64,000 nucleotides of DNA. Source: Allacma fusca (taxonomy: Eukaryota; Arthropoda; Collembola; Symphypleona; Sminthuridae). Both the position numbers and the translations under genes were made by a program. Numbering within the stretch: the first letter of the stretch is position 1; each line of letters starts with the position of its first letter. The notes beneath the pieces are model-generated. The model saw only the letters and a list, made by a program, of their open reading frames with translations, did no database searches and had not been told where the DNA came from. The stretch spans positions 42,136,801 through 42,200,800 of the forward strand of contig OX359247.1 in assembly GCA_947179485.1 (NCBI GenBank), read 5' to 3'. Below are positions 12,826 through 63,008 of the stretch, piece by piece.

Positions 12826-13657
12826 CAAAGGTGTCCAAATGACTCGGCCTATCCTATATCTTTCCTATTTATAAAATTGGAACCGAGCCTACATATATGC
12901 CTACATTTTAACCGCCGAATAGGTCAGCCTTTCCTACATCCTTCCTATATGGGGAGCACCAAGCCTACATACAGTATTAGCCTACATTTCATTGACAAAT
13001 CGGGTCAACCAATTTTACACCCTTCCTACATTTTATACCCTTTTCGTTACTGACAGACTATTTAAGGGCATTCCACTCTAATTAAAAACAATAACTCAAG
13101 TCAATGGAATCGGAATAAAATAGTTCAGTCACCTTGGCCAAAGTCCCCTAAGAGCGGAACAGTGTCGATATCGCTTGGGATTGCGCAGGAAATAGTGCCC
13201 AAATTTTACAACGTTGGTCAAAAGGAATGTCATACTTAAGATTTCACAAATTAAATACCATAAGAAAATTTCCAGTCAGCTGAACAATAAGACAATTATG
13301 ACAACGGGAATCTATAAGCTGACTGACAACATATCTCAGTAAATCCTGTTTGAAATTTAAATTGTGTTCAAATGCAATTTTTCATTTCAGTGGTATACAA
13401 TCTCCAAGTCCCAGTCGCGGATTATTCTTTAATTTTCATTTTGCCTGTTCGATATACCATTAAATCAAAATGACTTGCTTCAATAGCCTACATATATGCC
13501 TATAATTCTTCGACGGCTGAGCCTACCTATTTTGTAGGCTAGGTTTTAAGTGTATATTCTTGCACCCTATTTTGCCTACAAGCCTCTTTAATAAAATCCT
13601 CGCACCCTATAAATAGCCTACAAATAGGCCTATATGTAGGATAGGCGGACACCTTTG
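12826..13657 (+). mobile_element. hAT-like word-array element (CCTACATA word), copy 1
   Basis: The termini are CAAAGGTGTCC and GGACACCTTTG. The flanking 8-mers are GTGGAAAT (12818-12825) and GTGGAAAG (13658-13665). The body is filled with CCTACATATATGCC, CCTATCCTA and TAGGC words in both orientations around a more complex core. A second copy in inverse orientation at 51870-52984 has the same ends and exact 8-bp flanks. There is no coding potential. It sits 11 bp from the end of the Harbinger-like element. Confidence 0.8.
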
Positions 13658-13734
13658 GTGGAAAGCATTAACAAATTGAAACCTATAAGAAAAGGTAGCT
13701 AAATAAGCAGCTGAATTTCAAAACGTGTCTGAAT

Positions 13735-14670
13735 CAGAGGTGTGGAATATTTAGAAATATTGTATTTGAAATAATATTTGAAATAAATTTCGTATTTAGT
13801 ATTTTTCTCACCGTAAATTTTTGAGGTATTCCGTATTTTTTCAGGATCATAATCTCTATTGTATTTTGTATTTCGTATTTTGAAGATATATGTATATGAT
13901 GTTATTTTCTATTTATTTATCTTGTTACTTTTGCCCACCCCGTATTTCAAATACAAATTACAATTTCAAAATACATAGCTCTGGCCACTGTCCAGGTCGG
14001 CTGTGACATACATATGCCAGAATAAGCACTTTCAAAGGTAAAATATCAATTTGAAACATTTAGTCACAAATTCTCTAACGTTTTTGACTGGTTTGTAGTT
14101 TGTAGTACTTCCTTATTGGATATTCAACGTGTATTATATTTTAATGTGTGCTGGATATTAAATGCCATTCAATGTGAGGGTTATCAATTTAGTTAAATTA
14201 GTGACGCGACCGCCATAAATTACCCAGGTATTTTATAATTATATAATTTTTAAGGAAAATTATTCTGTATCTAGGATGACTTTGATGTGCACAAATGAAG
14301 GACTAAACTCTACTCATTTGCATCTTACCTTAAGTTTGCGAAATAATTTGTGGTTATTTGTTATCCAAGAGACTTTTACTTTCCTCTGACTTATTTAAAG
14401 ATCCTGGAATGATCCATATATGTATTTACCCATTTTGATAATGTTTTCAATATGTATTTTGTATTTCAAGTACGTATTTTCATTTCGTATTTTAGGTTTT
14501 TTAGGAAGCAAAGTATTTTATTTTTCAAAAACTAGTCCAGATATTTGTATTTGTTTTCTATCTTGACCAAGTTACACCTAGAATTTTATTTTATGGATAC
14601 TTGTATTTTAAGGTTTCTGAAATTGTTTTTGTATTTCAATAATAAACTTCATGTATTTTCAACACCTCTG
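13735..14670 (+). mobile_element. hAT-like word-array element (GTATTT word)
   Basis: It starts CAGAGGTGTGGAATATTT and ends AACACCTCTG. The 8-bp duplication GTCTGAAT is perfect on both sides (13727-13734 and 14671-14678). Both subterminal thirds consist of GTATTTTGTATTTCG-type words, with a less repetitive centre. A truncated relative lies at about 62302-62475 on the minus strand. Confidence 0.8.
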
Positions 14671-15149
14671 GTCTGAATTTCTGATCAAAACGTACATATG
14701 TACTTGATGAATTGTTTGTATTCGTGAGTTTTGATTCGCTACAAAAGCTGCTTATACATGGGGTCATCTAACCAAGGTAAGTCTTAATGTAAAAATTTTT
14801 ATCGGCCGATTTTACGATCAATATCCAAATCCAAGTTTTTGTGAAGATTCTTTAATATGTCAACACACTTTGGTTGGGTTCTATAATTTTTAAGGGTAAT
14901 TATTTCCGCAAATACCCTATTTAAGCCTTTCTTGAGACCTGAATGCCGCATTTTTTTGGAATCAAAAATATATCGCATTCAGATAGCTTCAGCAAACCAA
15001 ATGCTTGTCAGAAGGTTTATAATTCACTATACATTTAGATATATTTACCAGATTAAATATGTTACAATTTGCTTATCGAATTTACGCTAACTGTGAAGTG
15101 GTTCTTGGAAAATCCTCTTCAAGACAGAAAAGTTTGCAAGCTCATTGTC

Positions 15150-15225
15150 AGCTAGGCTCAATCTAGTCTTTCCCTGTAGGTCGAAGCAGGTGTTTACCAC
15201 TGGACCGTCTTGTCTGCTCAACTAT
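15150..15225 (-). other. tRNA-like segment just 3' of the receptor gene
   Basis: On the minus strand GGTCCAGTGGTAAACACC resembles a tRNA D-arm/A-box. It is followed about 30 nt later by a weak B-box-like GATTGAGCC. The equivalent segment follows the receptor pseudogene at about 4793-4856. It does not complete a cloverleaf and is probably a tRNA-derived SINE remnant duplicated with its unit. Confidence 0.25.
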
Positions 15226-15235
15226 CGTTTCATCT

Positions 15236-17957: not shown

Positions 17958-18873
17958 AGTATTTAAGAGCGTACAGCGACGAAAACAATGTATTTTATGA
18001 ATATTTGCCATTTGATTACCATGTGAGACTTTCCAGGCAGCTTTGTATATTTATTTACTTTATCTTGGTTAATGGCATCGTTCCCAGATTAAGCAGCTAG
18101 CAGTGAAGTAAGCAATTAATGGACGTCAAATTGTGGTAAATAAGCGGACAAACCTTTTAACTTGAATCAAAGCTCTTGTTGTGTTCAAGGGCCACAAAAT
18201 TATTCCATCTTTAATTGCTTAAATAACATATTAATTTTATTATTGAATACGTTGGACAATTTTACTGGAACCATTTTTGACCAATAATTATTTGGTAGAT
18301 TTCGGTTGCTGTAGTATTTAATGTATTTAATTGTTCTTCCCATTCTAATTATTTCATTTCCAAATGAGAAACATTTGGTTGTGTAGTAAGTCAGCCGTCA
18401 GCGTTATAGTTGCACAAAGGTTTTGGTGTTATAAAATGTTTGATTTAATGGGGCGGGGAAATGACTAGTTTTGGGGAACTAAATGGCAGATGAGTACGGG
18501 ATTAAATAAGTACCTTGAGGTGAGAGATGAGTCGAAGATTAATCTTCACAGTATTTGTTTTCATCTGAATGTGTTCCCTGCACTGTCAACCAGGGATTGG
18601 ATTCTGCAAGTTCACTATAATTTATATACCAGTACAATAATTCAGTCAGCATATAATTTTACAGTGTGATAGTATTATTGCACAATAATAAAACATTAGC
18701 TCATATCACTGATTTTAAATATTCTCGTTACAATTAATATCTAATTAGTTTTAACATTCTTACAATATTACTTCAGATCGCTTCAACTAAGAAAGTATGT
18801 GCGTCAATACTGACAATAACATTATGCAGTAACAGTTGGCAGGGATTTCACGATTTAATTGTTGTATATGTAC

Positions 18874-19771
18874 TAGTGTTTCTGATCGAGTTCGGGAAAC
18901 TCGAGGTTTCGAGTTCCAGACGGGTTCGAGTCGAGTTCGAGCCTAATATTTTTGGTACCTTTCGAGTCGGTTTCGGGTATCAAGTTTTCGACCCGAAAAA
19001 ATTGGGTCGAGTTTGCAAAATCTACCGGTCCCTACCAAAACTTGAAAGTAAAAACTTATTTTGGAATTATTGATTCATGTTACCTTAACAATAAAAATTG
19101 GCCTTCCTGCCACCTCTGATTAAAAAAAATCAAAGAAAACAAAACAGTCTCTGTACGCAGCAAGTATATTTACATGACCGTATAACACTCCTCTTACCTA
19201 AGTTATATTAGCGTACGAAGCTAAGTACCCTAATATGGATGGAGCGTGAATTCTTGGGTATTCCTGGCATTCCTATCGAGCGTGCTTTTTCGTTGGCTCC
19301 GACATTTTAACACTGAAATGTTTGGCTACTCAAGAAGATACGATATGGAAGTTACCGCTTTTAATATCGTGGTTAAAGTTGGCATATAACAAGTTTATCG
19401 AAGCAATAATGAAGTGCATTACGGGGGGATAGCCGGTTATACCAAATTATAATGAAAATTCGAAATTATATTGAAAAAAATGAAAACGACACATTGCTGC
19501 ATTATTTTGCTTTTACAAATAAAATTGTTTGTTTGATGCTCATTTTTCGGGACTGTGTGATGTTGTATTTTACGTAAATTTTGTGTCTGGTTTCGGTTCG
19601 AGTTCGAGTCGGTTTCGGGTATAACATTTCTTAACGGTCTCGGTTTCGGGTACAAACAATTTCCCGACTCGAATGTCCCGAGTTCGAGTTCCAGCCCAAA
19701 AGTGGAATTTACACCGGGTTTTTGTTTCGAGTCGAGTCGAGCCCAACTATTTGTTACCGATAGAAACACTA
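18874..19771 (+). mobile_element. hAT-like word-array element (TCGAGTTCGG word)
   Basis: It starts TAGTGTTTCTGATCG and ends in the near inverse, CGATAGAAACACTA. A perfect 8-bp duplication ATATGTAC flanks it (18866-18873 and 19772-19779). Both ends carry arrays of TTCGAG and CGGGTTTCGGG words. The middle is ordinary AT-rich sequence. The open frames in this interval are low-complexity artefacts. Confidence 0.78.
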
Positions 19772-20071
19772 ATATGTACATTAATATTGGCGTTGCATTG
19801 GACAGTAATCCTGTGTTCGCGATTTTTGGCTGTTGATGTAAATGTCTATAATGTTTTTGTATTTTTACTTGCTTTTGTTTCGATTAAATAGACTATTTTT
19901 GATTTCCCAAACATCTTTGGAATCCTTCATCCTGTCATTATAAATTTATATGGTATGTTTGAGTATAATAACGTATGATACATTTGTTTTTAGACAAAAC
20001 AGTACTGTAATTTGGTAGGCAAAAATCAATACCCGTTCCATCACCTCATGCAGCCATAAAATTCCTGGGTT

Positions 20072-24724: not shown

Positions 24725-27179
24725 ATCATCAATCCTACAAATCACAATTACCATTGTTTAAATAGTCAACAAACCATTGAGCGAGAAAAAAGGATACAAC
24801 AAATGAATTACCATGAACCTGCTGCTTTGCGAGAGCACAGGTCATGCTAATCTAAGGAATATAAAATTTTATACAAAAGAACATCAAAAGAAATTCTAAC
24901 AAAATTTTGACCCTAGAACAAAAATTTCAGCCAATAATCCTCAGAACATCTTGACTTTGCACCACGTTCTTGACATTGTGACCTGGTCTAAAATAATAAT
25001 GAAACAAATTTTGAGAAAATTGAAAAACAATTTTGCTTCAAAATTGCGGAATCGTATATGTTCTATCTTCTATCGTTGTCCTTTATCTGGGTTTGGGTGG
25101 GAGAAATAGGATGTACATAGGACACCCTGAAATATTTTCTTTGGGAGCTACAGATAGCTCCTAAATTCTTGGATTTTATGGGAAAAAATTAATTTTGAAA
25201 TTGGAATTACAAGTGAATTTTAACGTGAGCAGCAACCCAAAAATCAGATAAACTCTTGACTTTTTTTTGCAGTTTGTATTGACATCTCTCGTGAGATGTC
25301 TCCCCGCTAAATCGCATGTTTAAGCAATTTATCTGTGTTTACGAAGGATTCGAGAGAAACATTTGAACTAATTATAGCAAAAGTATTAAGCAAAAAAAAT
25401 ATTTTCAAGACGCCATTTCAGAAAATAATTTCAAAAAATTTATTACAACTCCAAATTTGAGTTCAAAAACGATGTTTTGCTTTTCAGGCACTTTGGACAA
25501 ATATTCACTGAAAATTTCGTAGATTATTGCCAAATAGTTTTTGTCTTAGGTATGTCATTTTTTTAAACTTTTATGCCAAACCCCTTTAAAATTTGAATTA
25601 TTGGTGCAAATTTAAGTGACATTTAATAAAAACAAAAGAGTATTTTTCAGCTGGTAAATACATTTTTGTACTTTGATACAATTTTGACAATTTTGAGTTG
25701 AGTGGGCATCCGAAGTAACTTTTGTGCTTTCTAACAGGCTAGCCCTATTTCCATTTAAACAGGAGTCACCCAACATCAAGGTAAAATATAGATTTATTTT
25801 TATGACGTTTTATTATCAAGTGTTTTCATGAGTAAAAGCAACTTGGAAAATAATTTTTGAAAAATCAGTGACAGTTTCATGGTGGTTGTATATAGGGACT
25901 GCAAGTAGTCCTGAAACATATATTTCAAAATTTTCATTATTTCATAATGTATGGCCTTCCGAATTAATTACAAAATACTAATACCACGATATGTGTTGAA
26001 TAGCGGTAGCAATTAGTACTGAAGATAGCAAAATTAGTAACTTATGTATGTACATATAATTCGGAACTATTAGCATTGAATATTGACGGATGGATGTCAA
26101 ATTGAATGTATCTCATAACTAACATTAAGTAAGCCATTTTCAATCGAGTTCAACTAATATAGTTTTTTATTACCAAAAAAGTCCTAATTACTTATGAATT
26201 CTACTGATATTAATTCATTATTTCTCGTCATAATATATTTATTCAAACTTAATTTTAGTACATCTCGGAACATTATGGACTTAAACAATAATTTACTAAA
26301 ATTGATATATTTAACATCGACCTTCCTATGTTTTATTATTGGTTGGAGGTTCATTTTTCTAAAATTTGGTAGTAGCTACCTTTTATGTAGTATACCTATT
26401 TGTAATGGATATTCTTCTTTCTTCAAGTAATTTTGAGCTTGCCAAAATATTAATGAGATAATTAATTAGCCGTATAATAAGCATAGAGAAGCCAAAATGG
26501 AACAAAATATTACCCAATTGCGTTTTTGAACCTTTTCCCTTGGTGTTCCAAAATTATCTGCAGTTGGCAACAACCTTGTAGAACTCCCGTCAAAAACTGC
26601 GAACTGAAAAGCACTTTACTGGGTCTGCATTGGTTGCCTGAGAACATTTTGACACCCGCAATCATTGGAGATCAAAGCTGGGCAAAAAGATTGCTTTCAT
26701 CGTATCCTAAATCCTACATACATTTTATAGTTTACGAACAGCGTACATTTTGCATACATAAATTTGTCCAGAAATGCAATCATACATATATGCATACATA
26801 AATTTGTCCCGAAATGTAATCATACATATATTCATCATATAAATAAATTTATGCATAAAAATATGTACACGTGCCTATATAAGTGCATTTAGAACGTTCT
26901 GAACCTTTATATAAACTAATGAAGCATGGCTTCGCGCGTGTACATTGTTAATTAGTTAAGTTTAAAATTATTAATTTCTAGTTTCGTAGGTTTCAGTCAC
27001 AACGTATAGAAATCGTTTGCATTGCAGCAGGAAATAATAATTGCGAATACACTAATAAACACAGACCGTGCCAAGCAAATACAGATGGAGCTCGCTGAAC
27101 ATACACGGCGCATACATAATACATACCTAAATCTCCCCGGCCTTTTAAACATACATACTCGTAAATACAGTATTCATAC

Positions 27180-28286
27180 TGTCGGGTATAATTATACGCG
27201 TAGGCGTATATATGTGTATATTTGCCTCATTTGAGGCAATCTTTGTTTGGAGCCTAAGAGCTCCAGGGTTTTGAATATAGGAGCCGGTAGGCTCATTAGG
27301 TAAATTGAGGACTCGGATGAGTCTCACCTGTGTTGTTTACTGGCCAGGGTTTTTTTAGAGGCTGGCCAGGTAAATTATAATCTATTTATAGAAGTGAGGC
27401 TACCTGTCCTGACCCACTTAAATGAATTTAGTTTGTTAGTTATAAGTATTTTTTTGATGCTCCAAGTGAACACTACATATTTATAAAGGTACTCCCGTAA
27501 GTACCTGTCCCGATACATATATAGTGTATAAAGTGTAGTGTCAACTGTGAAGTGTAGTGTTTTTCCTCTGACCTGAGCCTGGTTTTGAGGTCGTCAAGAG
27601 CAGGAGGTCAAGGAGTGTCTTCTTTGTGTAGTGCCTGGTCCCGCGAAAGCTGAGGGCTATATTAGCAAGAGGCCTTCCCTGGATCAGGACTCAGTCAATT
27701 CATTATTTTCGACCCAGTTCTTTGATTTATTTGTGGAATACACTTTTGAGTTTTTGTTAGAGTAGTTACTTATTATTTTTGAGTCAATGTAGTTAAAAGG
27801 GCCTGTAGCAGGCATAATTATTATTGTAGTAATTATTATTTGAAGAGTTCCAAGTGGAGCTATTTTGTGTTGTTCTGTAATATACATTTTTTTGAAGTTA
27901 TTATCATTTTTTTGGTTGTTGTTAAATAAATAGTAACATATCAGTTACTAAAGTTAAACTTTATTTCTGAGTCTAAGTCTTCGGTCTTGATTAATTTTTT
28001 TTTGAAGACAGGCTCCTGAAATTATTTCCTCTCCTTTATCCTGTTCTTTATGTTTTTGGACTTTTCCTCAAAAGTCCGACCCTACCGCCTTTAGTGGAGT
28101 TTCTCTCCGCGAAGAGGACAATAATTATTATTGTTGGGGACCGCCACTGCGAGAACCGATCCTCCTAATCCTATTGAGTCCTGACTTTTAGAGAGGAGTC
28201 ATCGATAGAAATAATTATTAGAGTCAGGCCTGCAGTTTACATTAGCGAACATCCCTTGGATCCATTTCTCTGAAGTCTTGCCGACA
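27180..28286 (+). repeat. 5' LTR of the Ty3/gypsy element
   Basis: The LTR is 1107 bp, starts TGTCGG and ends CCGACA, with the 4-bp target duplication ATAC before it (27176-27179). It differs from the 3' LTR at about four positions by eye, which indicates a very recent insertion. It contains AATAAA within GTTAAATAAATAG, a TATA-like ATTTATAAAGG, and several short hairpins such as GCCTCA-TT-TGAGGC near the left end. U3/R/U5 limits cannot be set from sequence alone. Confidence 0.95.
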
Positions 28287-31169
28287 TTATAATTTAAGGC
28301 GCCGGGTAGTGTCCTGATATCCGTAGACCCGTGTGTGTTGGCCAAGTCTTTCTGGGAATTTCCAGCCGTTCCAGAAGTCATCCGTTTGAGTTGAGGCCAT
28401 CGTGCCACCAAGTGGTTTTTTGTGCCTTGAACTTTTGCTTTGAACTAACAATATACTTTTGAGCCTTCCCCTATGAGACTTTTTGTGTTATTTTGAAGAC
28501 TTATTTTGCGGGGTTCCTTAAACCCAGATCTATTTTCTGAACTTATTAGTGAAGTCCTATTTTGAAGTCTTGAGTACTCCGTTGATGTCTCGCAAGCTAT
28601 TTGGATCAAAAGACCAGGTAAGTAAAAGACTTAAGTATTAATTTTCTCTCCCTGTCCTTTATCTGATTTCCTGTATTTTCAGAACTGTAGAGTTCTAATT
28701 CGGATAATATTGTAGGAGTTCATTTCAAACTCATGTGAATCAGTCAGGTTATATTTTTGAAAGAATTTGGTCGTCTTTCTGTAGCTGATTGTGAGTCATC
28801 GTCGTTGGAGTGCATTTGATTTCATAATTAGTGAAGCTGTATGAATTACTTCAATTTTTTTTGTGTCATCTTTCGAAGTAAAATCTATTTTTTTGAATTT
28901 TGACAATTTAAAAAAAAAATATAAGTCCATTCGTAATTACTTGTGAAAGCCATGAGTTCTTTCCCCCTGAATTTGTAGTCAGTCTTTTTGTAAACAATTT
29001 TTTTTTGAATCGTGATTTGTAAGTCCGTTTATATTTTCTGAAATATCTGTAACTAGTTAGTTACCTGGAAGTAATTATTAATTTTTTTTTGAGTTTTGAG
29101 AGATTTGCCAATTGGAAGTCTTTACTTGTGATTACTATAAGAGTCATGAGCTTTTCTTCTGATTTGTTTTGAATTCCATTTTTCATAATAGTATTGAGCC
29201 ATAAGTTGTAAGTCTTTACTTGTGTTTAACTATATGAGATTCATGAAAGTTTCTTTTTGTCTCTGAATTTGAAGTCCATTACTAGTAATATTACCGAGTC
29301 CTAAATTGTAAGTCTCAGTTATTATTTGGAGAGATATTTCTGAAAGTCATGTCAGTTTCTTTTGACTCGGATTTGGTTTGACAATTTTTTTTACATAAAG
29401 TGCGAGTCTCAGTGTCGATTTTTCTGAAAGTCATGACATTTTTTTAAACGTTTGTTCAGTTTCTGGTAATTAGTGAATTGCCAGTCCTTGTCATCATTTT
29501 GAAATACCTGTAAAAGTCATGTTAGTAGTTTTTTAAATTGTCTTTGATCTCAAAAAAAAATTATTGAATCCTGTGTTGTAAGTCCTGGTTCTCATTAATT
29601 AGAATAACTGTAATTCATAATAGTTATTTTGGAGCTTGCATTGAGCTTTTCTTTCGACTTATAATGTTATGGAGTCGTGGTTGAGTAAAGTCTGTGGCTG
29701 ATTGTGAATACAGTTTTTTTTACTTGAAGTCTATTATGCTGTACTAAAAGTTCACTTTCATAATCTTGAGAAATCTCCCGAGTCCCGATTATTTTTGTCT
29801 TGATCAAATCCTATGCTAATTAAGATTTATTTCGAGTCATGAACTTTTGCTAGACCTCCGAGAGTAATTTATTTACATTTTTGGCTGTTTTTGGACATTT
29901 ATTTACAATTAGAGGGAATTGATCCCTGTGCGCCAATTGGGCTTGGCAAAGTTACATACGGTTGAATATTCATGATCAATCAGTGTTGACAAGTCATTGA
30001 ATTTCTTATTTGTTTGCATATTATTGCAGTCTTGAGACCCCAGAGTTGTGCAATTATAATTTTAGTGCATAATTGTACCCATTAAGCATTATATTTTGCA
30101 TTATTTTGGATTTTCATAATTTGGGCTACTAATTAGTACAGATTTTACTAATAGTAATTTGCATTAGTGAGTCCTGATCTGGAGCACACATATCATATAG
30201 ATTTAAGTGGTGTCCCTCTACTCTAATTGGGTTCTGTTTTTGTATGCTGATTTTGTTGAGAGTTGAAGTGAATATATGTACCTTCCCTTCCCATTCCTGG
30301 ATATTCAATAGATAGTCTTGATAACTATATCGACGTCGCTCACGATTGGGATTGGCGGACCACTACTGAACGGGGAACTCTGGTTTTTCCGGATAGCCGT
30401 TCGCGCGACAAGGAACGAAAGTCGACGACTGTATTGGTAATGTCAAAACGCGTGTAGTAAACGTGAACAAGTTTTCTTGACGAGACCCCGGAGGCGGCTA
30501 GCTAAATAGCTAGTGTTGCGCAGTCGGAGCTATTGATTGTTCTCCTTACCCCTACCTGTATGAATGTTGATGTGTATGTTTGATTGTGTATGAGTGTAAG
30601 CGGTTTGTATAATTTTGTGTTAATGTAGCGGCTTGCTCATATTTGGCTTCATATTGCATAGAAGGTAGTAGTAGTAGCTTGTAGCTACTAAGGGTAGTTC
30701 ATTTGGTTGTATTGCACGTGCAGTAGTAACGATCTGCATATATTCCGATTTATTTTGTGGTCCTTCGAACCGGGCTATTTTTGTGTAGTAGTGGTTTATA
30801 GCCATTTACAGTATAGCTAGGTGCTTGCTTGTGTCTACAGTTGGTTCCTTGTATCCTTATCTGCTAATATAACTATTTTTGAACCATTTTTATTTGAATA
30901 GTAGATTTTTGTGAGGAATTGCTCACAGCTTGCTTGTTTATTTGAATTTTTAGTACTTCTAATTTGTGGGAATACTCGCAAGAGTAGCTTACTGCCCTCA
31001 TTCAATTTGAATTAGATTGCAAGGTATTGTTTAAGTTTTATTAATTTAAATTTAAATCATTCCTGGTCACATTCAAACGTTAGGGTGGTTACTACTGGTG
31101 GTAGTTACCGAAGTTCTACGGTTCCTCTTTCACATCCTTCCGAGTTTGTCCGTCCCTTATACTATTCCC
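28287..31169 (+). other. Long leader of the LTR element, with tandem repeats and a splice donor
   Basis: There are almost 2.9 kb between the LTR and the first gag ATG with no long ORF. At 28585 an ATG opens 11 codons that end exactly at a consensus donor, CAG|GTAAGT (28617/28618). From about 28920 to 29660 there are about eight degenerate repeats of roughly 95 bp, each marked by (G)TAAGTC and an AGTCATGA(G) block. A good acceptor-like tract ending ATTATTGCAG lies near 30030. The leader may be spliced or structured. Confidence 0.6.
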
Positions 31170-32057
31170 ATGGATCAGAACGCAATTAATGCGGCAGTTC
31201 AAGCTGCGCTTCAGTTTTTAGCTGCTAATCCAGTCCCTGGTTTAGGAGGCAATGCCTCTAATGATTTCCATGTCATTCAGAACCTACGTAAGTATGACGG
31301 GTCGTATGTAGCTAGTTCCTGGCTAGATGAGTTCAATAGGGAACGCGGTACGTATAACCTTTCTACTACATGGGCTCTACGAAATTTAGACAGGGTATTG
31401 TTAGGTACGCCTGCTATCTGGTGGAGGTCTCAACGTGGACCTTACTTCACCGCTATTGATAGGGATCCTGCTACAGCTGATGCTACGTGGCAAGATGCAT
31501 CCCAGGCCTTTATAGGGTTCTTCAGCAATGCTAATATTAAGGAGCGTGCTAGGTCAGAGCTCGAGTCAATTAGGTTTAGAGTTGGTGATGACGCCATGAC
31601 TTATGTAACCAAGAAGGTTGACTGCATGACTAGGATGAATCCGAATATGCCTATCGATGACCAGGTCCGGTATTTGATTACTGGTTTACCTGAGGATATC
31701 AGACCATTTATAGCTGCTCGCGATGTAGATACGGTCGACCAGTTCTTTCGTAAGCTTAATAGGCACATTTCTTTGGGTATGCCTAAACATAAGAACAATA
31801 ATGGCGAGAATAGCCAGAGTCCTCAAGTGAGGAAATTTGAGTCTAAGGGCAATGAGCCTAAGAAGGGAATTGAGGGGTTGAAAGTGCCCCGATATTCCAT
31901 TGACCATATTAAGAGTTGTGTAGACCAAGAAGGGAGAAGATTATGTCTTGAATGTAAGGCTCCCGGTCATGCTGTTCGCAACTGTTTTAAGCTTGCACAA
32001 GCCCAGGGAATTACTATTCCAGCCTGGGGCAAGAAGAAAGATGAGTCAAAAAACTAG
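31170..32057 (+). CDS. gag: Gag protein of the Ty3/gypsy element
   Basis: The product is 295 aa from the first in-frame ATG at 31170 (CCCATGG context). The reading frame is open further upstream without an ATG. It is the structural polyprotein expected to form the particle and bind element RNA. The middle of the protein has the Trp-rich capsid-like region (SSWLDEF, TPAIWWRS, FIGFF). A CCHC zinc knuckle C-x2-C-x4-H-x4-C lies near the C-terminus (CLECKAPGHAVRNC). The frame ends TCA AAA AAC TAG, so the stop codon directly follows a slippery heptamer. The pol frame lies at -1 relative to gag. Confidence 0.92.
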   Translation: MDQNAINAAVQAALQFLAANPVPGLGGNASNDFHVIQNLRKYDGSYVASSWLDEFNRERGTYNLSTTWALRNLDRVLLGTPAIWWRSQRGPYFTAIDRDPATADATWQDASQAFIGFFSNANIKERARSELESIRFRVGDDAMTYVTKKVDCMTRMNPNMPIDDQVRYLITGLPEDIRPFIAARDVDTVDQFFRKLNRHISLGMPKHKNNNGENSQSPQVRKFESKGNEPKKGIEGLKVPRYSIDHIKSCVDQEGRRLCLECKAPGHAVRNCFKLAQAQGITIPAWGKKKDESKN

Positions 32058-43662: not shown

Positions 43663-44531
43663 TATTAGGAAAAAGCAAATGGAATTGAAAGTACTTATTG
43701 TAACAGTTTTTATATATAATGTCAGATAAATTCTCAGAATTTGTATTGCTAAAGTTATTTGCTCACTATTTTTTAATTACAATCCTTTACATCCATACAC
43801 TTGATCTTTATATCCCCTAAAATTATCATTAGGAATTAAGGATTGATTTGTAGGAACCATGGACTTTAGTAACAATATCAATTAGAAGTGTTGCGCTAAT
43901 ATGAATTCCTTTCACTTTTCCTATTTTAAATTATCAGTGCGTCCAGTGTCTAATATTGCGTTTGGGAGAGAACTTTAGTGGGCTGGAGCGTTGTACCATA
44001 ATATTTTGATGATGAATTGCCAACTAGCTATTTGAAACGAATTGTTAATCTTACAATTAATAGTTCATATGTCTTATATGAGATTACTTTGCCCAGCGAA
44101 GCTGGCTATTATTATTAAGCCTTCTCGACATGCCATGTATACGGGATCTATAGCAATTTACGGTTTTGTGTATATTCTCACAATTCTCAAGTAATTGCCC
44201 CTGGGCTGAGCACAGGGCTTTTACTAGTTCTTATTCTATTCCTATTCAAATTCTATTCATCAGCAATTAAAAACCGCGCGCTGAAAACTAGTGGATAAAG
44301 CGCGCTGTATAAATATAACTACATTTTCTTTCACTATTCCAATTTTCAGGTCCTTGAATTATAACTTGCTATTGACAATGATAATAAAATAACTGATAAT
44401 TACCAAATTTACGAGTCACTTCCAGGCAGAAGAGAATTAAACGGGCGTATAAATAATTATTTGTACTCAATAATTGGCAGTTAACAGGCCAGAATTAATA
44501 AAGTAATGCTTACCCTCAAAATATATTTCTA

Positions 44532-44752
44532 GTTTTTAGCCGCTTAGTAAAAAAACCTTGTCTGTACGTCCGTGTGTGTGTCTTCCGCACGATATCTCAA
44601 AAACCGCTGCACCGATTTCAATGAAATTTATATTACAATTTTTTGAAAGAAATTAGGAAATTTAAAAAAAACTCAAAATTCGTCCTACTTTGACGGCGGT
44701 AACTGACGCCACCGTACTCGAAGCCTCAAATTATCGCGTATCGATGATTTTT
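44532..44752 (+). mobile_element. Helentron-like element, internally deleted copy
   Basis: It begins GTTTTTAG and ends GCCTCAAATTATCGCGTATC followed by GATG and a T run. It shares CCGATTTCAATGAAAT and the TGACGCCACC inverted block with the copy at 4869-5443. Most of the interior is missing, and one base of the terminal hairpin is changed. Confidence 0.55.
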
Positions 44753-45024
44753 ACACATGCAATCAAAGGGGATTAGTTATTTTTTTTGTTTATGACATTC
44801 TCAGAGGCTCAGATTTGAATAAGAATTTCTCTGTTTTTACTATTCAATTCTAATCTTGGCATCAGGTGCATAATCTATTCTATTCTAGTCTGGGAGTTTC
44901 AAAAATCGAGCTCTTCAATTCTATTCGATTTATTTCTGTATAAATGTCGGCAATTCTATTCAAATTCCTATTTTCCTATTCAAGTCGGAATAGAATAGGG
45001 CAGCAGTGTGGGAATGTACGTATC

Positions 45025-46128: not shown

Positions 46129-46778
46129 TATCGTAGTTCAGCATATTAATGCATACCCACCAGTCCTCGGCACGGGTATGGGTAATACTCGGGTAAACAG
46201 GTACGGGTCCGGGTATTGGTGCTACCTGGGTACCGATTTTGTGTACCCAATCAAGTTCGGGTACTACCCGGGTACACTTTTGTCGGCTCAAAATTTCGGG
46301 TACGGATGCGGGTATGGGTACTTGTACAACGATTTCAAAATGAGTATATACCTACCGGGTACGGGTATAATTGGGTCATTTACTCGTACCCACGACCATT
46401 GTACCCGATTATTTGGATACGTTGAGAATTGAGACATTTTGATGAATATTTTGCCATCATGCCCGTACGTTGGAAACTTCTGTCCGTATTTGTAGTGTTT
46501 CTGAATACATATAGCTTAGTGTTAATACCCTTTTGAGCTTACAAGATACAGTAAATGTATTTTAGACTGTGTAGCTAAAATATATGCTTTTAGGGCAGCA
46601 TGTTTTAGGAAGTATAAATAAATAAACACAAACGAAGGGTAATAACAAAATAGAAGTGGAGAATAGGATTCAGCGAAATTTTGTACGGTTGGTAATATAT
46701 TGATGAATCTGCAAGTATTCAAGTTATTTTTATTTCCAATAGAAGTTTTTCTACTCTTCAATGAAAATATATAATATC

Positions 46779-48821
46779 CAGAGCATTGGAAAATACTAAT
46801 TTTTTTTCTGAAAATACAAAATAAAATACATTTAAATAAAAGCCAAACTACAAAATACAAAATAAAAATACCTCCGTTAATTTTATGAAAATACAAAGTA
46901 AAAATACATTATATTGTGGGTTATTCAAAATACCAAATACAAAATACTGTATTTCAAATACTTTTCTCAAGGTACAATGCTTTCATTGAACTCGATTTCT
47001 TGAGCACAGTTTTAGAAAAACAAGCATTTTAAAAACACCATCAGAAAGCGGAGCAATTCTGGGACTAAATACAAGACCTGCAAAACTAAATAACCGCTTT
47101 ACAGGGGCTGACGAGGCCCTGGGAGTATTAAAATTAAAAAAAACATTTCTTTGACGTTTGGGTTTGGAGACTTGTCCAAAATAGTCAAGCTTTCATAAGT
47201 ATCCTTCAAATAGTTTAAGCATTCCCATTCAACGATTTCTTCGGTAATTGATGATGAGGGAATTAACTTCATGTAAGCCTTTGCTAAACCGAACAATTTT
47301 AAGGCGTCACCAGCCCCCTTATAAACTAGTGTTGTCCGTGGGCCCGTTTATCCCGCGGGTTTCCTCCGAACCTACCCGACCGATTTCGTTCAAAATTTTT
47401 GTGAACATTTGTTAGGCTACATCCTCGAATGAATTCGTTATTGGTTGAAATCGGTCCACGTATTCGTACGTAAACAAATAAAAACGAACAAAATCTTTGT
47501 TTTCTCACGAACTGTTGCATCGATTTCAATTAAATGTTTTTATACGCACTATTCAGTACTACTAACGCTGTTTTTTAAAAAATATTTCGGAATTTAATTT
47601 TTGATGTTTCAAAAATTTGTAACGCTCGTCAGCCTTAAATAATCGCGGAGCGATGTTTTTTATTGTAAAGTGCGCTCACTCATACCATCTCATACGAGCA
47701 GAGCTGCGCTCAAGTTCAAGTAGTACTTGACAAGTATCAAGTCAGGTCAAGTTCGGATCAAGTTCGGGATAATGAGCGTTTCTAACTTGGTTGAATCGAG
47801 TCAAGTTCAAGTATTTGGTGGATCCGAACTTGGAACTGCAAGTCGGTTCTGGTCCAAGTGCAAGCCCACAGAATTGACTTGAACTAAGGATCAAGTTCAA
47901 GTTCGGGTCTGGACATGGATTTTACTTGAACCCGAACTTGCACTTCAAGTACCGATTCAAGTATCTTAGTTCCAACGTTCGCACTTCTGCAACATGCATT
48001 CTAGAAACAGAAACCATGTCTGCAGAGATATGCACAGAAGCTGGAGCTCACTTTCATTTGGAGTGACTGTTGTGTATTCTGTAAATCGTCGTGCTTAAAA
48101 CTATTCTTCTAATTTTTCATCTTTTTTGAAAAACTGTTGAAGTAAATTGTCCGGTGAGACTGTGACACAAGGAAAAAAACCATGAGTGAACCCGAATCTG
48201 AATTTAATAAAGACGACGGAAATTGAAAATCTTAACTTCACCAGTTTGAATGTTTTTGCGACTTCATAATACAAAGTGCAAGGTTCAAGTATTTACTTGA
48301 AATCCAAGTTCGGGTTCAAGTTAATTCCAAGTTCGGTTCTCAAGATTTATGGACCCGAATTCAAGTAACAGATCAAGTTCGGGTTTAGGAAAGATTACTT
48401 GCAAGATATGACTTGGTATGACAAGTAATTCCTGGGACCCGAAACGCCAAGTTCGGGTACTGACAAATATCTACTTGAAAGTTCAAGTGCAGGTCAAGTT
48501 CAAGTTCGGATCTTCAAAATACTTGACCCGAACGCAGGTCTGCATACGAGTGTTGTTACATGATGGTGACTACAGATGGCATGTACATTGGAAGTTATCA
48601 AATGAAAAGTATTTTGAGCAAAACGCTTTATTTGAAATACATTTGGTATGGCACTGTTAGCAAGAAAATACAAAATACTATCTTATTCAAAAACATGTAA
48701 AATATAAAGTATAAAATACTTATTCAATGCATTAGGGCTACAAAATACTAAATACAAAATACTCGAAGGTCTCAAAATACGTATTTTAAAATACTGTATT
48801 CCCAAATACTCCAATGCTCTG
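46779..48821 (+). mobile_element. hAT-like word-array element (AAATAC word)
   Basis: The termini are CAGAGCATTGGA and TCCAATGCTCTG (perfect). The 8-bp duplication ATAATATC is perfect (46771-46778 and 48822-48829). Both ends are AAATACAAAATAC arrays. Its interior hosts a Helentron-like fragment (about 47325-47662, ending ATCGCGGAGCGATG and a T run) and the hAT-like element at 47699-48542. Confidence 0.8.
47699..48542 (+). mobile_element. hAT-like word-array element (CAAGTTCGGGT word), nested
   Basis: It starts CAGAGCTGCG and ends CGCAGGTCTG, inverse apart from one or two mismatches. The 8-bp duplication CATACGAG is perfect (47691-47698 and 48543-48550). The body is almost wholly CAAGTTCAAGT/TTCGGGT/ACTTGAACCCG words at both ends. 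Confidence 0.8.
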
Positions 48822-49189
48822 ATAATATCAAATACCGCTCTAGCTAGTCAAAATTACACACTAAAATGTCATACATTATAATACATAACCTACTATGTAC
48901 TACATTTGAAGATATCTGGATATAAAGCACCCGAGTACGAGTACGGGTACGGCACTGAGATACCCGAGCATGGGTAAAATCCAGCAGCCTTGCTTCACAC
49001 CACGCGTCATGAATCCTACAAATCGCAAATATGTACCATTATTTAAATAGACAACAAACAAGTGAGCGATAAAAAAGATACAACAAATGAATTACCATGA
49101 ACCTACTGGTTTGCGAGAGCTCAGGTCATGCTGATCTAAGAAATATAAAATTTTATACAAACGAGCATCAAAAGAAATTCCAGAAAAAT

Positions 49190-51020: not shown

Positions 51021-51869
51021 GACAAAATTTTGACCTTAGAACAAAAACTTCAGCCGATAATCCTCAGAACATCCCGACTTAGCACCACGTTCTTGAACAT
51101 TGTGACCTGACCTGACCTGATAATGAAACAAATTTTGAGAAAATTGGAAAAGAATTTTGTTTCAAAATTGGTGAATCGTATATGTTCTATCATTGTCCCT
51201 TATCTGGGTTTGGGTGGGAGAAATAGGATGTATGTATATACATAGGACACCCTGAACTGTTTTCTTCGGGAGCTACAAATAGCTCCTAAATTGTTGGATT
51301 TTCTGGGGGAAAAACAGGGTTGAAAATTGGAATCGGAATTGGAATCGGAATCGGAAAAGAATCCGAAAATTTCAAGTATTAGAATCGGAATCGGAATTAA
51401 AAATACTGTAAAATTAGGTATTGGAATTCTAATCGGAATTGGAAAGTAAGTATCGGTATTGGTATTAGAATTTAATGATATTCCAATGAATTCCGATTCC
51501 ATTTCTGATATTGCATTATACAGCCATACAGAGACCTTTATGACCTTTTACATAATTAGTACCTTTACATTTTACACTTCTACATGGGTTTTCGCGCAAA
51601 TAGTTCTTTATCGTAGTAATGAAAATGGAAAGAAAGGCAGAATCATTTGTTTATGATTACTACGTCTACAATAAAAATCTAGAAATACAACAAAAAATGA
51701 AAGACATGTTCCAACGTATTCTGTGGAACAACTATGGACCGCACAAGGGACAAATGTATTAATTTGTTCAAGTGGTGGAATTATTCTCCAATTTTCTGAA
51801 ATTCTCCAGCAAGTAACATTTGTAATCTTGACCATTCCATCAACTTACAATATTAGATTCTGTGGGAAG

Positions 51870-52984
51870 CAAAGTTGTTCGCCTATCCTACATATAGGCC
51901 TATTTGTAGGCTATTAATAGGGTGCGAGGATTTTATTAAAGAGGCTTGTCGGCAAAATAGGGTGCAAAAATATAACCTAGCCGACAAAATAGGTAGGCTC
52001 AGCCGTTGTAGAATTATAGGCATATATTAGAGCTGGGGCCCGGAAGTAGGTTTTTGGATAGTGTATGTATGATGTAAATATAATAAAATATGTAAACAAA
52101 TGTTTCACATCGGATTCAATTGTTACTAAAAATCCGGGTTTTCATCGGGTTTTAAAACCATTTAAAGTTCGGGTTGTAAAAAATTTTGGAGACCGGGTTT
52201 TTCGCGGTTTCGGGCTTCACAAAATTTAAGATGCATAAAACGGGCCGGGTTGAATATCACATATTTAGCCCGTTGGCGGGCCGGGTCGGGCTAATAGAGT
52301 ATTTGTTTGGGTTTCTTCCGGGTTCGGGCCTGAAGTCAAGCCCGAATCCCACCATTAGCATATATGTAGGCTATTGAAACATGTCATCTTCATTTAATGG
52401 CATATTGAATGGACAAAATTAAAATTAAAGAATAATCCGCACCCGGTACTTGCAGATTGTGTTATAGGGGGGTTCAAGTGTAAAAATGTGTGCTATCTTG
52501 CCTTGATATGTGCTGCAACCTCAGTGAAATTAAAACTTCTAAATATTCGGTAAAGTGGGAACTTTACGGAAATCTTAAGTGCGACATCGCTTTTGACCAA
52601 TGTTAAAATTTTGGAACTATTTCCGGCGTAAACCAAATTAATATTCATATTATTTTGCTCTTAGGGCTTTGGCCAAGGTGACTAAACTTAAACTATTTTA
52701 TTTCAACCCAATTTACTTGAAAAAGGATTTTTAATTTATTAGAGTAGAATGCTCTTAAATAGTCTGTCAGTTACGAAAAGTACATAAGATTTAGGATTTG
52801 TGTAGAATTCTTTGATTTAATTTGTCAGTGTAGGCTAATATGTAGGCTTGGTGGTCCCCATATAGGAAGGTTGTAGCATAGGCTGATCTATTCGGCGGTT
52901 AAAATGTATTCATATATGTAGGCTCGGTTCAAAATTTATAGATATGAAGGATATAGGATAGGCTGAATCATTTGGACACCTTTG
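51870..52984 (-). mobile_element. hAT-like word-array element (CCTACATA word), copy 2
   Basis: This is an inverted relative of 12826-13657 with the same CAAAG...CTTTG termini. The 8-bp duplication GTGGGAAG is perfect (51862-51869 and 52985-52992). It is inflated by the 330-bp element at 52028-52357. Confidence 0.82.
52028..52357 (+). mobile_element. hAT-like element (CGGGTTTCGGG word), innermost of three
   Basis: It starts TAGAGCTGGG and ends CCCACCATTA, partial inverses. The 8-bp duplication GCATATAT is perfect (52020-52027 and 52358-52365). The homologous position in the family copy at about 13490 is unoccupied. The body is CGGGTTTTCGGG/CCGGGTCGGGC text. Confidence 0.7.
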
Positions 52985-53279
52985 GTGGGAAGACTTTTCT
53001 CTGCATTACGTTTAATTTAAAACTATAACCTAGGTCGACTATCGGAGTAATCCCTGCAAAACATGTTGTTTGTCGTCGAATGACAAAAATTTTTAATTTG
53101 AATAGAATCGGAATTGGAATCGGAATTATTTAAAAGTATTTGAATTAATTGGTATCGGAATTCAAAATTAATTATTTGGATACATCGGAATCGGAACCTA
53201 AATCGGAAATAAATTTAAGCAGGTATTGTAATTGGAATCGGAATTTTTATTTTTCCGATATTTCATCCCTGGGGAAAAA

Positions 53280-60350: not shown

Positions 60351-60972
60351 AGATGTCCGCATGAAATATCCTTCCTTCAAACCTTCGAAGGCAAAAAAAC
60401 GCATTCCTTCATCCTTCTTTGAAATGAAGCCTTTAAAATATATGCCTTCCCTCAGCCTTATTTCGCTTATTAATTTAATGCCTCCTGCCTTCAGCCTTCA
60501 AAAAAAATCAGCCTATCTTCCCACTTCCCACTCAGCCTTCATAACACGAAATACCATAGCAATGCATTTAAACAACCCTTTTGCAGGTTAAACACCTTAA
60601 AATCAGCAATACAACACAAAATTACATGATTCCCAGGTATTTTTCATTAAACAAACGTAGGTACTCAAGTTCGTCCGAATCATAATTCCATGAGTATATC
60701 AATAAGCGGTTACGGTTTCTTATTGCGCATATAACTATGCACATCATGCATTTGCAGTGTTTTCAGTAGATCTATCATTGTTTTATTTTTTGGGTATCTA
60801 TTGTCGTTAATTGTACGCGCGAAGCTTTTTAAATAGCAGAGGGCTTCTTTACAAACGTCCTTCCTTCGCCTACCGTTTTGCGAAGGTCAACTGCTGGAGA
60901 TGAAGTATGACATTTTTGGTTGTCATTTCTTATTTTTTGTAAAAATATTCCAGTTGTTATCTGGGCTCCAAC

Positions 60973-62112
60973 CAGGGTTGCACAATTGAAAATGCCATGG
61001 CATTTTCGGCAATATGCCTGCCCAAAATTCCAGGGCATTTTCATTTCATGGCATTTTGGGCATCTATGGCATTTTGGGCATTTTGGGCATATTCAGCCTA
61101 GAGCAGGCATTTTCGGCATATTCGCTTCAATTTTTTAAATATGTGTCTTTAACTACCTGCTAATTTTGCAAAATAAGTCACAAAACAGTGTGTTGAAAAT
61201 AATTTTAATATTAAACTGGATTACGTGATAAAATTATAGAAACAAACTGCTTCCAAAAAGGTTGAAACCTGGAGCAAGTTGATATAGACATATTTATGAA
61301 ATAATAATAATAATTCTATTTTACTTATTCTATTGTAAAAATTCATTTGTACAACCTGTCTGTAATTATTTAGACTTCAAGAACAAACATATTCGACCAA
61401 AGATGCAACACAAAAAGATAAAATACTTGTTAAAGATTAAAAATATCTTTGTATGTGAGCTTCAAAACTCGTCATCATCTAAATGCATTTATTGTTACAT
61501 TTTACACAACTCCTAGAATTATTACACTGTTTTCCTTTTACTAGGGCTGATTAAATGCAATTTTCAAAGTCGACACAAAATTTGCTACGGAAGCTCCAAA
61601 GTTTTGACATATATTATAACCGCCGCATCTTATGTATCTAATGAAAGTGTAAAATTTTCTATACTCTACAAGCCATTATCAAAATTCGAAATTTATGCTG
61701 GCACTGTGCAAATTGCTCTTTCCAAATCCCAAAGTTTTTTTAATAGTGTACAGCGTTGAATGTTTGCAACTCCGTTGGGGCTTAAATTTTTTTTAAGGAT
61801 TACTAAAATAACCACTGGAAATAAGTAACGAATTAGACGCATTATTTTTTTTAAATCAACTATAACATTTTCTATACCTGGATGGGTTTAATTATGCTAT
61901 GAAAAACTCCCTTATATTTACTAAAGGAGAAATAATGGTCTTAGTGTATAAGTTTCTGTAAAAATGCCCAATATGCCCAAAATGCCTGCCGAAAATGCCG
62001 GGCATTTTCAGATTAAGGCATTTTCAGGGCATTTTCGGCGTTTTGGGAATTTTCAGGGCATTTTTAGGAGGGCAGGCATAAAACCTAGGGCATTTTCATT
62101 TGTGCAACCCTG
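60973..62112 (+). mobile_element. hAT-like word-array element (GGCATTTT word)
   Basis: The termini are CAGGGTTGCACAA and TTGTGCAACCCTG (perfect). The 8-bp duplication GCTCCAAC is perfect (60965-60972 and 62113-62120). The first and last about 150 bp are GGGCATTTTCGGCATTTT/AAAATGCCC arrays. The roughly 800-bp middle is plain AT-rich DNA. It is inserted exactly at the left boundary of the next element. Confidence 0.88.
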
Positions 62113-62119
62113 GCTCCAA

Positions 62120-63008
62120 CATACCTGGGCGCACTCGCACTCATTGAGTGTATGCCTCGCACTCAGCCTCGCACTCAACGCACTCAAATTGAGTGCGAAT
62201 GCGAGTTCCGATTTGAAATTTCTGCGCTCACAGCAATGAGGTAGAGTGATCATTCAAATTATGTGCACTCAAGAGGCAGAGGCTGAGTGCAGTTTTTGCA
62301 CTCACAACTAGGGTATACGAAATAGAAAATACACTAGAAAGTATGGTACTGACAAAATGCCAAATGCAAAATACCTTACAAAAATTTACGACTTGAAAAA
62401 TACTGAACACGAAATACGGAATTCATTTCAAGTACTATTTCAAATACAATATCTCAAAATATTCCACAACCCCTGGACTTTAGGTAATTTTTTCACAGGT
62501 ATCAGCGTCCCGACTTCTAAATTGTAAGATGAGGAAAAAATTGAGCCCCATCAAATACAGCTGCTTTGACTAATTTGTCAAGGAATCATTTAAGAAATAT
62601 TAAAAAATTTCCACAAAATGAAGTATAAATACATATTTAGTATTATCTTGTATTAGCTAAAACGGGGGAACATGATGACACATCAAGTTCATTGAGAGGG
62701 GTGAGATCTATTACAAGTAACCACAAAACTAATTGTGAGACGTTGTTTTCGAAAAAAACGTTGTTGGTAAAGGAGATCCACGTATTCAATCCAGCCATTA
62801 ATTATAACACCCACTCGATGGTGCGAGAGGGCTATGAGGGCACTCAAACTTTGAGTGCGAGTGCAAAAATTTTGGGAGAGTACTTTGAGGCAGGAGTTTG
62901 AGTGCAGCGGGGTGCAAGTCATGAGTGCGAGCGCGAGGGGAGTTTAAAGTTCCACCATTGTAATTGAGTGCGAGGTGAGTGCGAGTGCATACGAAACGCC
63001 CAGGTATG
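62120..63008 (+). mobile_element. hAT-like word-array element (GAGTGCGA word)
   Basis: The termini are CATACCTGGGCG and CGCCCAGGTATG (perfect). The 8-bp duplication is GGCTCCAA; the right copy is 63009-63016 and the left copy is now overlapped by the neighbouring insertion. Both subterminal regions are GAGTGCGAGTGC/CGCACTCGCACTC arrays. A minus-strand partial copy of the GTATTT-word family (about 62302-62475) lies inside. Confidence 0.8.

What the first reader, a model, noticed from the sequence alone, without database searches (positions are those of the whole stretch)
12826..63008. A set of hAT-like elements each built from its own short degenerate word
Seen directly: at least nine insertions have CA- or TA-starting inverted termini and exact or near-exact 8-bp direct flanks (GTCTGAAT, ATATGTAC, TTGGAGAT, TGGGAATG, ATAATATC, CATACGAG, GGGAAAAA, GTGGGAAG, GCATATAT, GCTCCAAC, GGCTCCAA). 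In most of them the subterminal hundreds of bases are arrays of one short word that differs by family: CCTACATA, GTATTTTG, TCGAGTTCGG, CTATTC, AAATAC, CAAGTTCGGG, GGAATCGG, CGGGTTTCGGG, GGGCATTTT, GAGTGCGA. Known: hAT transposases bind short subterminal repeats. Inference: each word is the binding site of a different cognate transposase or zinc-finger protein, amplified into an extended array. Such density and diversity of family-specific arrays in one locus is not something I know as described.
Basis: partly seen in the sequence, partly recalled or inferred. Interest (0 to 1): 0.87.

Follow-up and report, generated by a model that had tools for sequence, protein, structure and literature searches.

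The report
Springtail hAT transposons with word-coded ends
A springtail genome holds many families of hAT jumping genes, each of whose two ends is packed with copies of one short DNA word, probably the landing site of that family's own transposase; the kind is known, but so many related word sets beside their enzymes in one genome, mostly running the same way at both ends, makes the enzyme-word match testable.

Summary
Confirmed and extended. The window is from the springtail Allacma fusca or a very close relative. It holds 12 hAT-like elements, 11 with exact 8-bp target duplications, one with 7/8. Four are proved insertions by empty sites. Junctions of 30 further genome copies of three families show exact 8-bp duplications in 28. 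Words learned on one end recur at the other in 11 of 12 elements (10-40 hits; E9 fails); 150 random pseudo-elements gave at most 8. The words are fewer than claimed (about nine for eleven elements). Transposase-bearing hAT elements of the same genome carry such arrays too, and in nine families word similarity follows transposase identity (Mantel r 0.76), partly through plain descent. In 15 of 21 elements a polarity index puts the words on the same strand at both ends although the tips are inverted; one is reversed and five are undecided. That hAT transposases bind family-specific subterminal motifs is established (Ac, Herves, Hermes, CGGBP-type hATs). So: a rich new case of a known kind with an unexplained polarity trend. 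Binding was not tested, and no intact coding element with the same ends as a window family was found.

The parts
12818..13665 (-). E8b: hAT element 12826-13657 (inverted relative of E8), word AGCCTACA at both ends, target duplication 7/8 (GTGGAAAT/GTGGAAAG)
13727..14678 (+). E1: hAT element 13735-14670, 936 bp, TSD GTCTGAAT, tips CAGAGGTGT, word AAATAC (GTATTT) mostly on one strand at both ends
18866..19779 (+). E2: hAT element 18874-19771, TSD ATATGTAC, tips TAGTGTTTCT, word TCGAGT
26665..39552 (+). E3: hAT element of 646 bp (26673-27176 plus 39403-39544) split by an LTR retroelement, TSD TTGGAGAT, word CATACA; empty site in the paralogous stretch near 54454
27177..39402 (+). Ty3-type LTR element inside E3, LTRs 27177-28286 and 38293-39402 (99.6% identical), RT, RNase H and integrase in one ORF
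42408..45016 (+). E4: hAT element 42416-45008, TSD TGGGAATG, tips CACTGCTGCCC, word CTATTC mostly on one strand at both ends
46771..48829 (+). E5: hAT element 46779-48821 (1191 bp without E6), TSD ATAATATC, tips CAGAGCATTGGA, word AAATAC mostly on one strand at both ends; 9 of 10 fetched genome copies have an exact 8-bp TSD, the tenth 7/8
47691..48550 (+). E6: hAT element 47699-48542 inserted in E5, TSD CATACGAG, word CAAGTTCGG; empty site in 4 of 4 fetched E5 copies
51307..53279 (+). E7: hAT element 51315-53271 (834 bp without E8/E9), TSD GGGAAAAA, word GAATCGGA mostly on one strand at both ends; empty site near 25180
51862..52992 (+). E8: hAT element 51870-52984 inserted in E7, TSD GTGGGAAG, tips CAAAG(T/G)TGT, word TAGGCT/AGCCTA
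52020..52365 (+). E9: 330-bp hAT-like element inserted in E8, TSD GCATATAT, imperfect tips; empty site in E8b; word array not established
60965..62120 (+). E10: hAT element 60973-62112, TSD GCTCCAAC, tips CAGGGTTGCACAA, word AAAATGCC; 10 of 10 fetched genome copies with exact 8-bp TSD
62112..63016 (+). E11: hAT element 62120-63008 inserted at the right target copy of E10, TSD GGCTCCAA, tips CATACCTGGGCG, word GAGTGCGA mostly inverted between ends; 9 of 10 fetched genome copies with exact 8-bp TSD

Best explanation
These are non-autonomous hAT transposons of many related families. Shown: the ends, the 8-bp duplications, the arrays of one word per family concentrated in the outer thirds, and the same design in transposase-bearing hAT elements of this genome, where related enzymes have related words. 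Inferred: the word is the binding site of the family's transposase, read by its N-terminal BED-type finger; many copies at each end give a multimeric transposase enough weak contacts to find and hold its own ends, so that short, similar tips can be told apart among many co-resident families, and deletion derivatives stay mobile as long as they keep the arrays. Words spread inside an end by local tandem duplication (spacings of 5, 6, 7 and 12 bp recur), and word and finger drift together. The same-strand arrangement at both ends is measured for most elements; its cause is a guess (copying between two direct arrays, for which direct collinear similarity of the two ends in several elements is a hint, or selection against ends that would fold back on each other).
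For: TSD and tips above control; empty sites; 28 of 30 genome copies of three families with exact 8-bp TSD; hold-out word test positive in 11 of 12 elements with a random control at nominal rate; of 20 fetched loci with a hAT dimerisation domain, 11 have an exact TSD and tips with at most 3 mismatches in 12 around it (no shuffle control for that scan), and 22 of 24 hold-out tests on 12 elements reach p<=0.01 (L036 and L040 are near-duplicates of L033 and L039, and L038b is an outer element whose own transposase was not shown); word profile similarity against transposase identity, Mantel r=0.76, p=0.0001, nine families; BED-type fingers CxxC..N(F/Y)(K/Y)(K/R)HL in L031, L033/34/36/48, L035, L042, L049 and a different one in L045; polarity index. 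Literature, passages only: Ac AAACGG repeats bind transposase cooperatively (PMC3260210), Herves CGATTCAT at both ends (PMC3143072), motifs of hAT-encoded CGGBPs match subterminal regions of their own element (PMC8097297).
Against: No binding data. No intact transposase-bearing element with the same ends was found for any window family; only sibling families by word profile (E8 and L032 53; E11 and L042/L046 45/44; E2 and L046 42), and some such links are weak: E4 resembles L033 (33) no more than it resembles E8 (34). One decayed E5-like left end lies 1.8 kb from a hAT domain. Pfam named no BED domain in 20 transposase fragments. Residual collinear DNA similarity explains part of the word-enzyme correlation: 3 of 12 end pairs tested, L037/L038, L032/L039 and L038/L039, at the lowest possible p. 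Two of 36 identity values in the Mantel test were filled in by hand. In Hermes, mutating putative inner sites of the left end did not dramatically reduce transposition (PMC10368747, section 17 part 1), so long arrays need not all serve transposase.
Confidence: 0.8

Rival explanations
1. The arrays are docking sites for an element-encoded or host protein that works against silencing or controls transcription, as VANC proteins do on VANDAL elements, rather than for the transposase.
For: VANC target motifs are short, family specific, densely arrayed in the same orientation and arise by tandem-repeat formation (PMC5735166, passages), which resembles the same-strand arrays here.
Against: VANC motifs lie in noncoding regions such as introns and upstream regions; here the words hug both ends and are rare in the middle. 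hAT transposases are already known to bind such end repeats. A second gene of that kind was not looked for.
Confidence: 0.12
2. The arrays are by-products: slippage and copying between ends made low-complexity ends that hitchhike with the tips and do nothing.
For: Short recurrent spacings suggest slippage. Left and right ends of E4, E7 and E10 align in direct order better than any of 100 block shuffles, and E2, E5, E6, E8b and E11 at p 0.02-0.05, which suggests copying from end to end; in E10 the stretch is about 105 bp.
Against: Words are shared by families whose ends no longer align in order, such as E11/L042, E11/L046 and L042/L046, recur at both ends of transposase-bearing elements, and are at or below background in the middle and elsewhere in the window.
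Confidence: 0.08

Closest known systems
Maize Ac/Ds (hAT)
   Same: Short tips, 8-bp duplications (recalled), repeated hexamer AAACGG in about 200 bp at each end bound cooperatively by transposase; many non-autonomous derivatives (PMC3260210, passages).
   Different: One family and one word; here about nine words in one window and more in the genome.
Herves and Hermes (insect hAT)
   Same: Short motif at both ends (Herves CGATTCAT, PMC3143072, passages); the Hermes BED domain reads AAG(T/C), with 17 and 14 copies in left and right end, unevenly arranged (PMC10368747, section 8 and section 17 part 1).
   Different: Longer words here. Hermes sites are said to be antisense in the left end and sense in the right; the frame of that statement was not clear to me, so Hermes may or may not share the same-strand trend.
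hAT-derived CGG-binding proteins and their hAT relatives
   Same: Related BED/Hermes-type domains bind diverse motifs, and motifs of four hAT-encoded proteins match the subterminal region of their own element (PMC8097297, passages).
   Different: There the binding was measured; here the arrays were measured and binding was not.
Kat1 of Kluyveromyces
   Same: hAT transposase with a repeated hexamer inside the tips (PMC4763223, passages).
   Different: Its repeats are reported with differing polarity at the two ends; here most elements have the same polarity.
VANDAL elements and VANC proteins of Arabidopsis
   Same: Family-specific short motifs in dense same-orientation arrays that spread by tandem repeats and diverge with their protein (PMC5735166, passages).
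   Different: Mutator-type elements (recalled), anti-silencing protein, motifs in introns and upstream regions and not only at the ends.

Membership tests
hAT superfamily | 8-bp target site duplication | tested here: met
   11 of 12 window elements exact, one 7/8; 28 of 30 genome copies exact
hAT superfamily | short terminal inverted repeats starting CA or TA | tested here: met
   E9 is imperfect
hAT superfamily | transposase with hAT dimerisation domain in elements with such ends | tested here: met
   11 of 20 fetched loci; peptides of the 20 loci have no match inside the window elements, only a remnant at 46166-46414, so only siblings meet it
hAT superfamily | autonomous element with identical ends for a window family | tested here: inconclusive
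   only a decayed E5-like left end near a hAT domain; copies beyond the best 40 per search were not scored
hAT subterminal repeats as transposase binding sites | repeats clustered at both ends, family specific | tested here: met
   11 of 12 window elements, 11 of 12 elements from transposase loci, control
hAT subterminal repeats as transposase binding sites | transposase binds the repeat | not testable with these tools
   needs a binding assay
BED zinc finger transposases | N-terminal BED finger | tested here: inconclusive
   pattern seen in 9 of 20 loci, a tenth match in L037 dropped as not credible, intron likely just after it; a stricter pattern found none credible; Pfam found none in 20 fragments
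VANC-type anti-silencing targets | arrays in introns and other inner noncoding parts of the element | tested here: not met
   words concentrated in outer thirds

The most novel reading that the evidence does not exclude
One springtail genome carries at least ten co-resident hAT families whose ends act as orthogonal address codes: each family is marked by a polarised, same-strand array of its own word, read by its own BED finger, and word and finger diverge step by step (CCTTCA, CCTTGCC, CCTACA; GAACTCA, CGCTCA, GCACTCA). The same-strand polarity at two mirror-image ends is a real design rule, clearly reversed only in E11 among 21 elements, and reflects how arrays are copied from end to end or how an asymmetric transposase ring grips both ends.
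Probability: 0.35. Interest if true: 0.75.

Novelty: new variant of a known kind. Interest (0 to 1): 0.55.

Why it matters
How a zinc-finger domain changes its DNA target while its transposon stays mobile is an open question. Here one genome offers a graded series of transposases (about 20 to 97% alike) next to their candidate target words in many copies, so that the recognition code of BED fingers and the co-drift of enzyme and site can be read and tested. The same-strand trend, if it holds, is a concrete constraint on models of the hAT transpososome.

Tried and rejected
Rejected: arrays as independent simple repeats (clusters outside the elements only at two remnants); long inverted repeats as the general reason for shared words (inverted collinear alignment above the block-shuffled null only in E6, E10 and E11 of 12); one word per element (E1/E5 and E8/E8b share). 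A first EM motif search with 10-bp windows gave blurred motifs and was not used for counts; the cross table there is trained on the same sequences. The shuffler gave odd outliers, so one search used a corrected one. Pfam scan of 20 transposase fragments for BED: none. A strict BED pattern gave one spurious match. A scan of the 30 loci of 3.2 kb gave one spurious pair of ends, so longer stretches were fetched. Relaxed search for ends of the nine other transposase loci gave nothing credible. A fine alignment of the E2 paralogue gave no output. Rfam at gathering threshold: none. Protein search with the L033 fragment: 2 proteins, both A. fusca. Paper searches: (listings); passages of seven papers, and of PMC10368747 passages and two sections. 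In what I saw none describes hAT word arrays in springtails or states a same-strand rule; two papers asked for, on Tol2 and Tag1, were not held.

Limits: the Mantel test used identities typed, the two directions merged by eye; two of 36 pairs without a BLAST hit were set to 20 by hand (L032-L050, L046-L050). Twenty of 150 scored hAT-domain places (860 candidates) were read in full. Genome copy searches scored the best 40 candidates each; E1, E2, E3, E4, E6, E8 and E9 were not searched genome-wide. Two of the ten E11 junction copies are mirror duplicates of one another. The polarity index left out E9, L036 and L040, counts related elements apart, and its control was 300 random 1200-bp pieces of five transposase loci; simple strand counts disagree with it for L038 (5 same, 7 opposite) and L050 (15, 14), and for L042 are same-strand (4, 1) where the index is undecided. 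The random word control tested one direction with 100 shuffles.
Full report
Where it is. A GDSL esterase in the window is 97% identical to an Allacma fusca protein, and a transposase fragment from the same genome is 99% identical, over 45% of its length, to an A. fusca protein. The assembly held has 392.7 Mb in 91 contigs and the window lies at C10:42136801-42200800. The species name rests on these hits.

The observation. With termini of at most 2 mismatches in 12 bases there are 14 pairs, nine of them elements and five not, against 0-6 in 20 Markov controls. Eleven elements have exact duplications: E1 13735-14670, E2 18874-19771, E3 26673-39544, E4 42416-45008, E5 46779-48821, E6 47699-48542, E7 51315-53271, E8 51870-52984, E9 52028-52357, E10 60973-62112, E11 62120-63008. 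A twelfth, E8b 12826-13657, is an inverted relative of E8 with a 7/8 duplication. They are nested: E6 in E5, E9 in E8 in E7, an LTR element with 99.6% identical LTRs in E3, and E11 in the right target copy of E10.

Proof of insertion. Duplicated stretches of the window supply empty sites: E3 (single TAGGAGAT, one base off TTGGAGAT), E7 (single GGGAAAAA) and E9 (single GCATATAT in E8b). E5 copies elsewhere supply the empty site of E6, a single CATACGAG, in 4 of 4 fetched; by coordinates, 12 of 12 E5 copies that hold the adjoining left piece run on into the right piece without a gap, one of them aligned from its second base. E2 seems older than the duplication: its right half and right flank recur at 9179-9777.

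Genome copies. E11: 40 scored of 667 candidates, the window's own included; 37 span the whole query 1-889; 93-100% identity. E10: 40 scored of 1946, the window's own included; 34 span the whole query, the other 33 of these at 85-88%. E5 left part: 40 scored of 992; 13 other copies reach from query base 1 or 2 to about 840 at 90-96%, and further groups match roughly 1-447 or 519-846 at 80-88%; right part: 40 scored of 566. E7 left part: 40 scored of 384, the window's own included, at 90-100%. Junctions of ten copies each of E11, E10 and E5 were read: exact 8/8 duplications in 9, 10 and 9 of 10; the two others have 2/8 and 7/8.

The words. Taking the five best 6-mers of one end (tips left out) and counting them at the other end gives 10-40 hits against 0.8-4.4 in dinucleotide shuffles, p=0.002 in 22 of 22 tests on 11 elements; the middle has none or background numbers (E1 scaled 4-5, about the shuffle level); E9 gives 2 and 1 hits. 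Random 900-bp pieces outside the elements (150) never give more than 8. Words: AAATAC (E1, E5), TCGAGT (E2), CATACA (E3), CTATTC (E4), CAAGTT (E6), ATCGGA (E7), AGCCTA (E8, E8b), AATGCC (E10), GAGTGC (E11). Outside the elements, clusters of four or more of these core words occur only at the E2 half copy near 9231 and at an E10 remnant near 42050. Repeated spacings of 7 bp (E1, E5), 5 bp (E4), 6 and 12 bp (E7) and 6 bp (E11) point to local tandem duplication.

Polarity. The words mostly lie on the same strand at both ends, although the tips are inverted. Core word counts (left +/-, right +/-): E1 2/8, 0/10; E3 5/0, 7/0; E5 12/1, 10/2; E7 6/1, 8/1; E11 is the exception with 2/7, 7/1. Strand-specific hold-out from left to right gives more same-strand than opposite hits in 11 of 12 elements, all but E11, with E10 nearly even at 5 to 4; 5 of the 12 reach p<0.05 alone. 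A polarity index over 21 elements is clearly direct (z above 2.5) in 15, undecided in 5 (E10, L032, L042, L046, L038b) and inverted in E11. E11 shares CATA tips and CTCA words with L042 and L046, both undecided by the index; simple counts for L042 lean to same strand, so a lineage-wide exception is not shown. For L038 and L050 simple counts are nearly even or opposite although the index is direct. [quoted passage not shown] inverted order exceeds the null in E6, E10 and E11. Kat1 repeats are reported with differing polarity at the two ends (PMC4763223, passages); VANC target motifs are in one orientation (PMC5735166, passages); for Hermes the statement is open to two readings (PMC10368747, section 8).

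The enzymes. The hAT dimerisation domain gives 150 scored matches of 860 candidates. Of 20 stretches fetched, 11 have exact duplications and tips with at most 3 mismatches in 12 around the domain, and arrays appear by the same hold-out test: 22 of 24 tests at p<=0.01 over 12 elements (11 with the domain, and the outer element L038b), L032 being the weak one. Words include CTCTAC/CTATTC (L033, L036), CCTTCA (L037, L038), CCTTGCC (L039, L040), CGCTCA/CCCTCA (L042), GAACTCA (L046), CGTTAC (L049) and CGGATA (L050). The 20 loci fall into 14 or 15 transposase families, depending on whether L037 and L038 (67% alike) are split. Across nine families with ends, word profile similarity follows transposase identity, Spearman r=0.76, Mantel p=0.0001. 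Part of this is plain descent, as L037/L038, L032/L039 and L038/L039 ends still align in order (p=0.016, the lowest possible); but L042/L046, E11/L042, E11/L046, E8/L032 and L037/L039 share words without significant collinear similarity (p 0.12 to 0.93; 12 pairs tested). BED-type fingers (CxxC, then for example FNFKKHL just before the frame breaks, probably at an intron) can be read in L031, the four L033-family loci, L035, L042 and L049, and another form in L045: 9 of 20 loci. Pfam did not name them, so this is my reading.

Link to the window families. By word profile (cosine x100) E8 is nearest L032 (53), E11 nearest L042 and L046 (45, 44), E2 nearest L046 (42); E4 and L033 (33) and E7 and L050 (22) are weak, as E4 is equally near E8 (34); E10 has no clear partner (22 at best). 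The tips of E11 (CATACCTGGGCG) and L046 (CATACCTCGGCG, CATACCCCGGCA) are close. Peptides of the 20 loci find no transposase inside the window elements, only a remnant at 46166-46414. An E5-like left end with decayed tip lies 1.8 kb from a hAT domain on C5. No intact partner with the same ends was found.

How it works, most likely. A multimeric transposase with weak single-finger binding is targeted by many copies of its word at each end; the tips are cut; derivatives that keep the arrays keep moving. Binding of such repeats by hAT transposases is published for Ac, Herves and Hermes (passages and sections); for these families it is inference. Why the arrays are polarised is unknown.

Novelty. 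The elements are hAT transposons and the principle is known. What I did not see in the papers searched is this many family words in one genome set beside their enzymes, or the same-strand trend. Many relevant papers are not in that library.

Noticed in passing
4106-9777 vs 9863-20066; 24726-26672 and 39547-41870 vs 49007-56705: Large paralogous duplications in the window, including two near-identical GDSL esterase genes (40917-41492, 55767-56342) and a diverged third on the other strand (57281-57934).
   Followed up: partly
27177-39402: Young Ty3-type LTR element (LTRs 99.6% identical, ATAC flanks) inserted in E3, with a long open frame for RT, RNase H and integrase.
   Followed up: partly
41963-42385: Harbinger-like short element by eye (TAA flanks, tips GGGAGCGTTCACAAATGACGTCAT) carrying an E10-family remnant with a right end inside.
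   Followed up: partly
46166-46414: Remnant of a hAT transposase similar to a peptide of L041, upstream of E5.
   Followed up: no
10625-10985: Eleven copies of a 33-bp unit, 98% matches.
   Followed up: no
G000 C8:28181777, 28191590, 28201403: Three hAT domain matches spaced exactly 9,813 bases apart, suggesting a tandem repeat unit that contains a transposase.
   Followed up: no
G000 C1:54717614, 54720369, 54723124: Three E7-family copies spaced exactly 2,755 bases apart.
   Followed up: no
L091, G000 C5:45204772-45205200: E5-like left end with a decayed tip 1.8 kb from a hAT dimerisation domain; candidate coding relative of E5.
   Followed up: partly
L038 2118-9723: A transposase-bearing hAT (2554-6775) nested inside another hAT-like element whose word GGTCTGG array is nearly balanced between strands.
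   Followed up: partly
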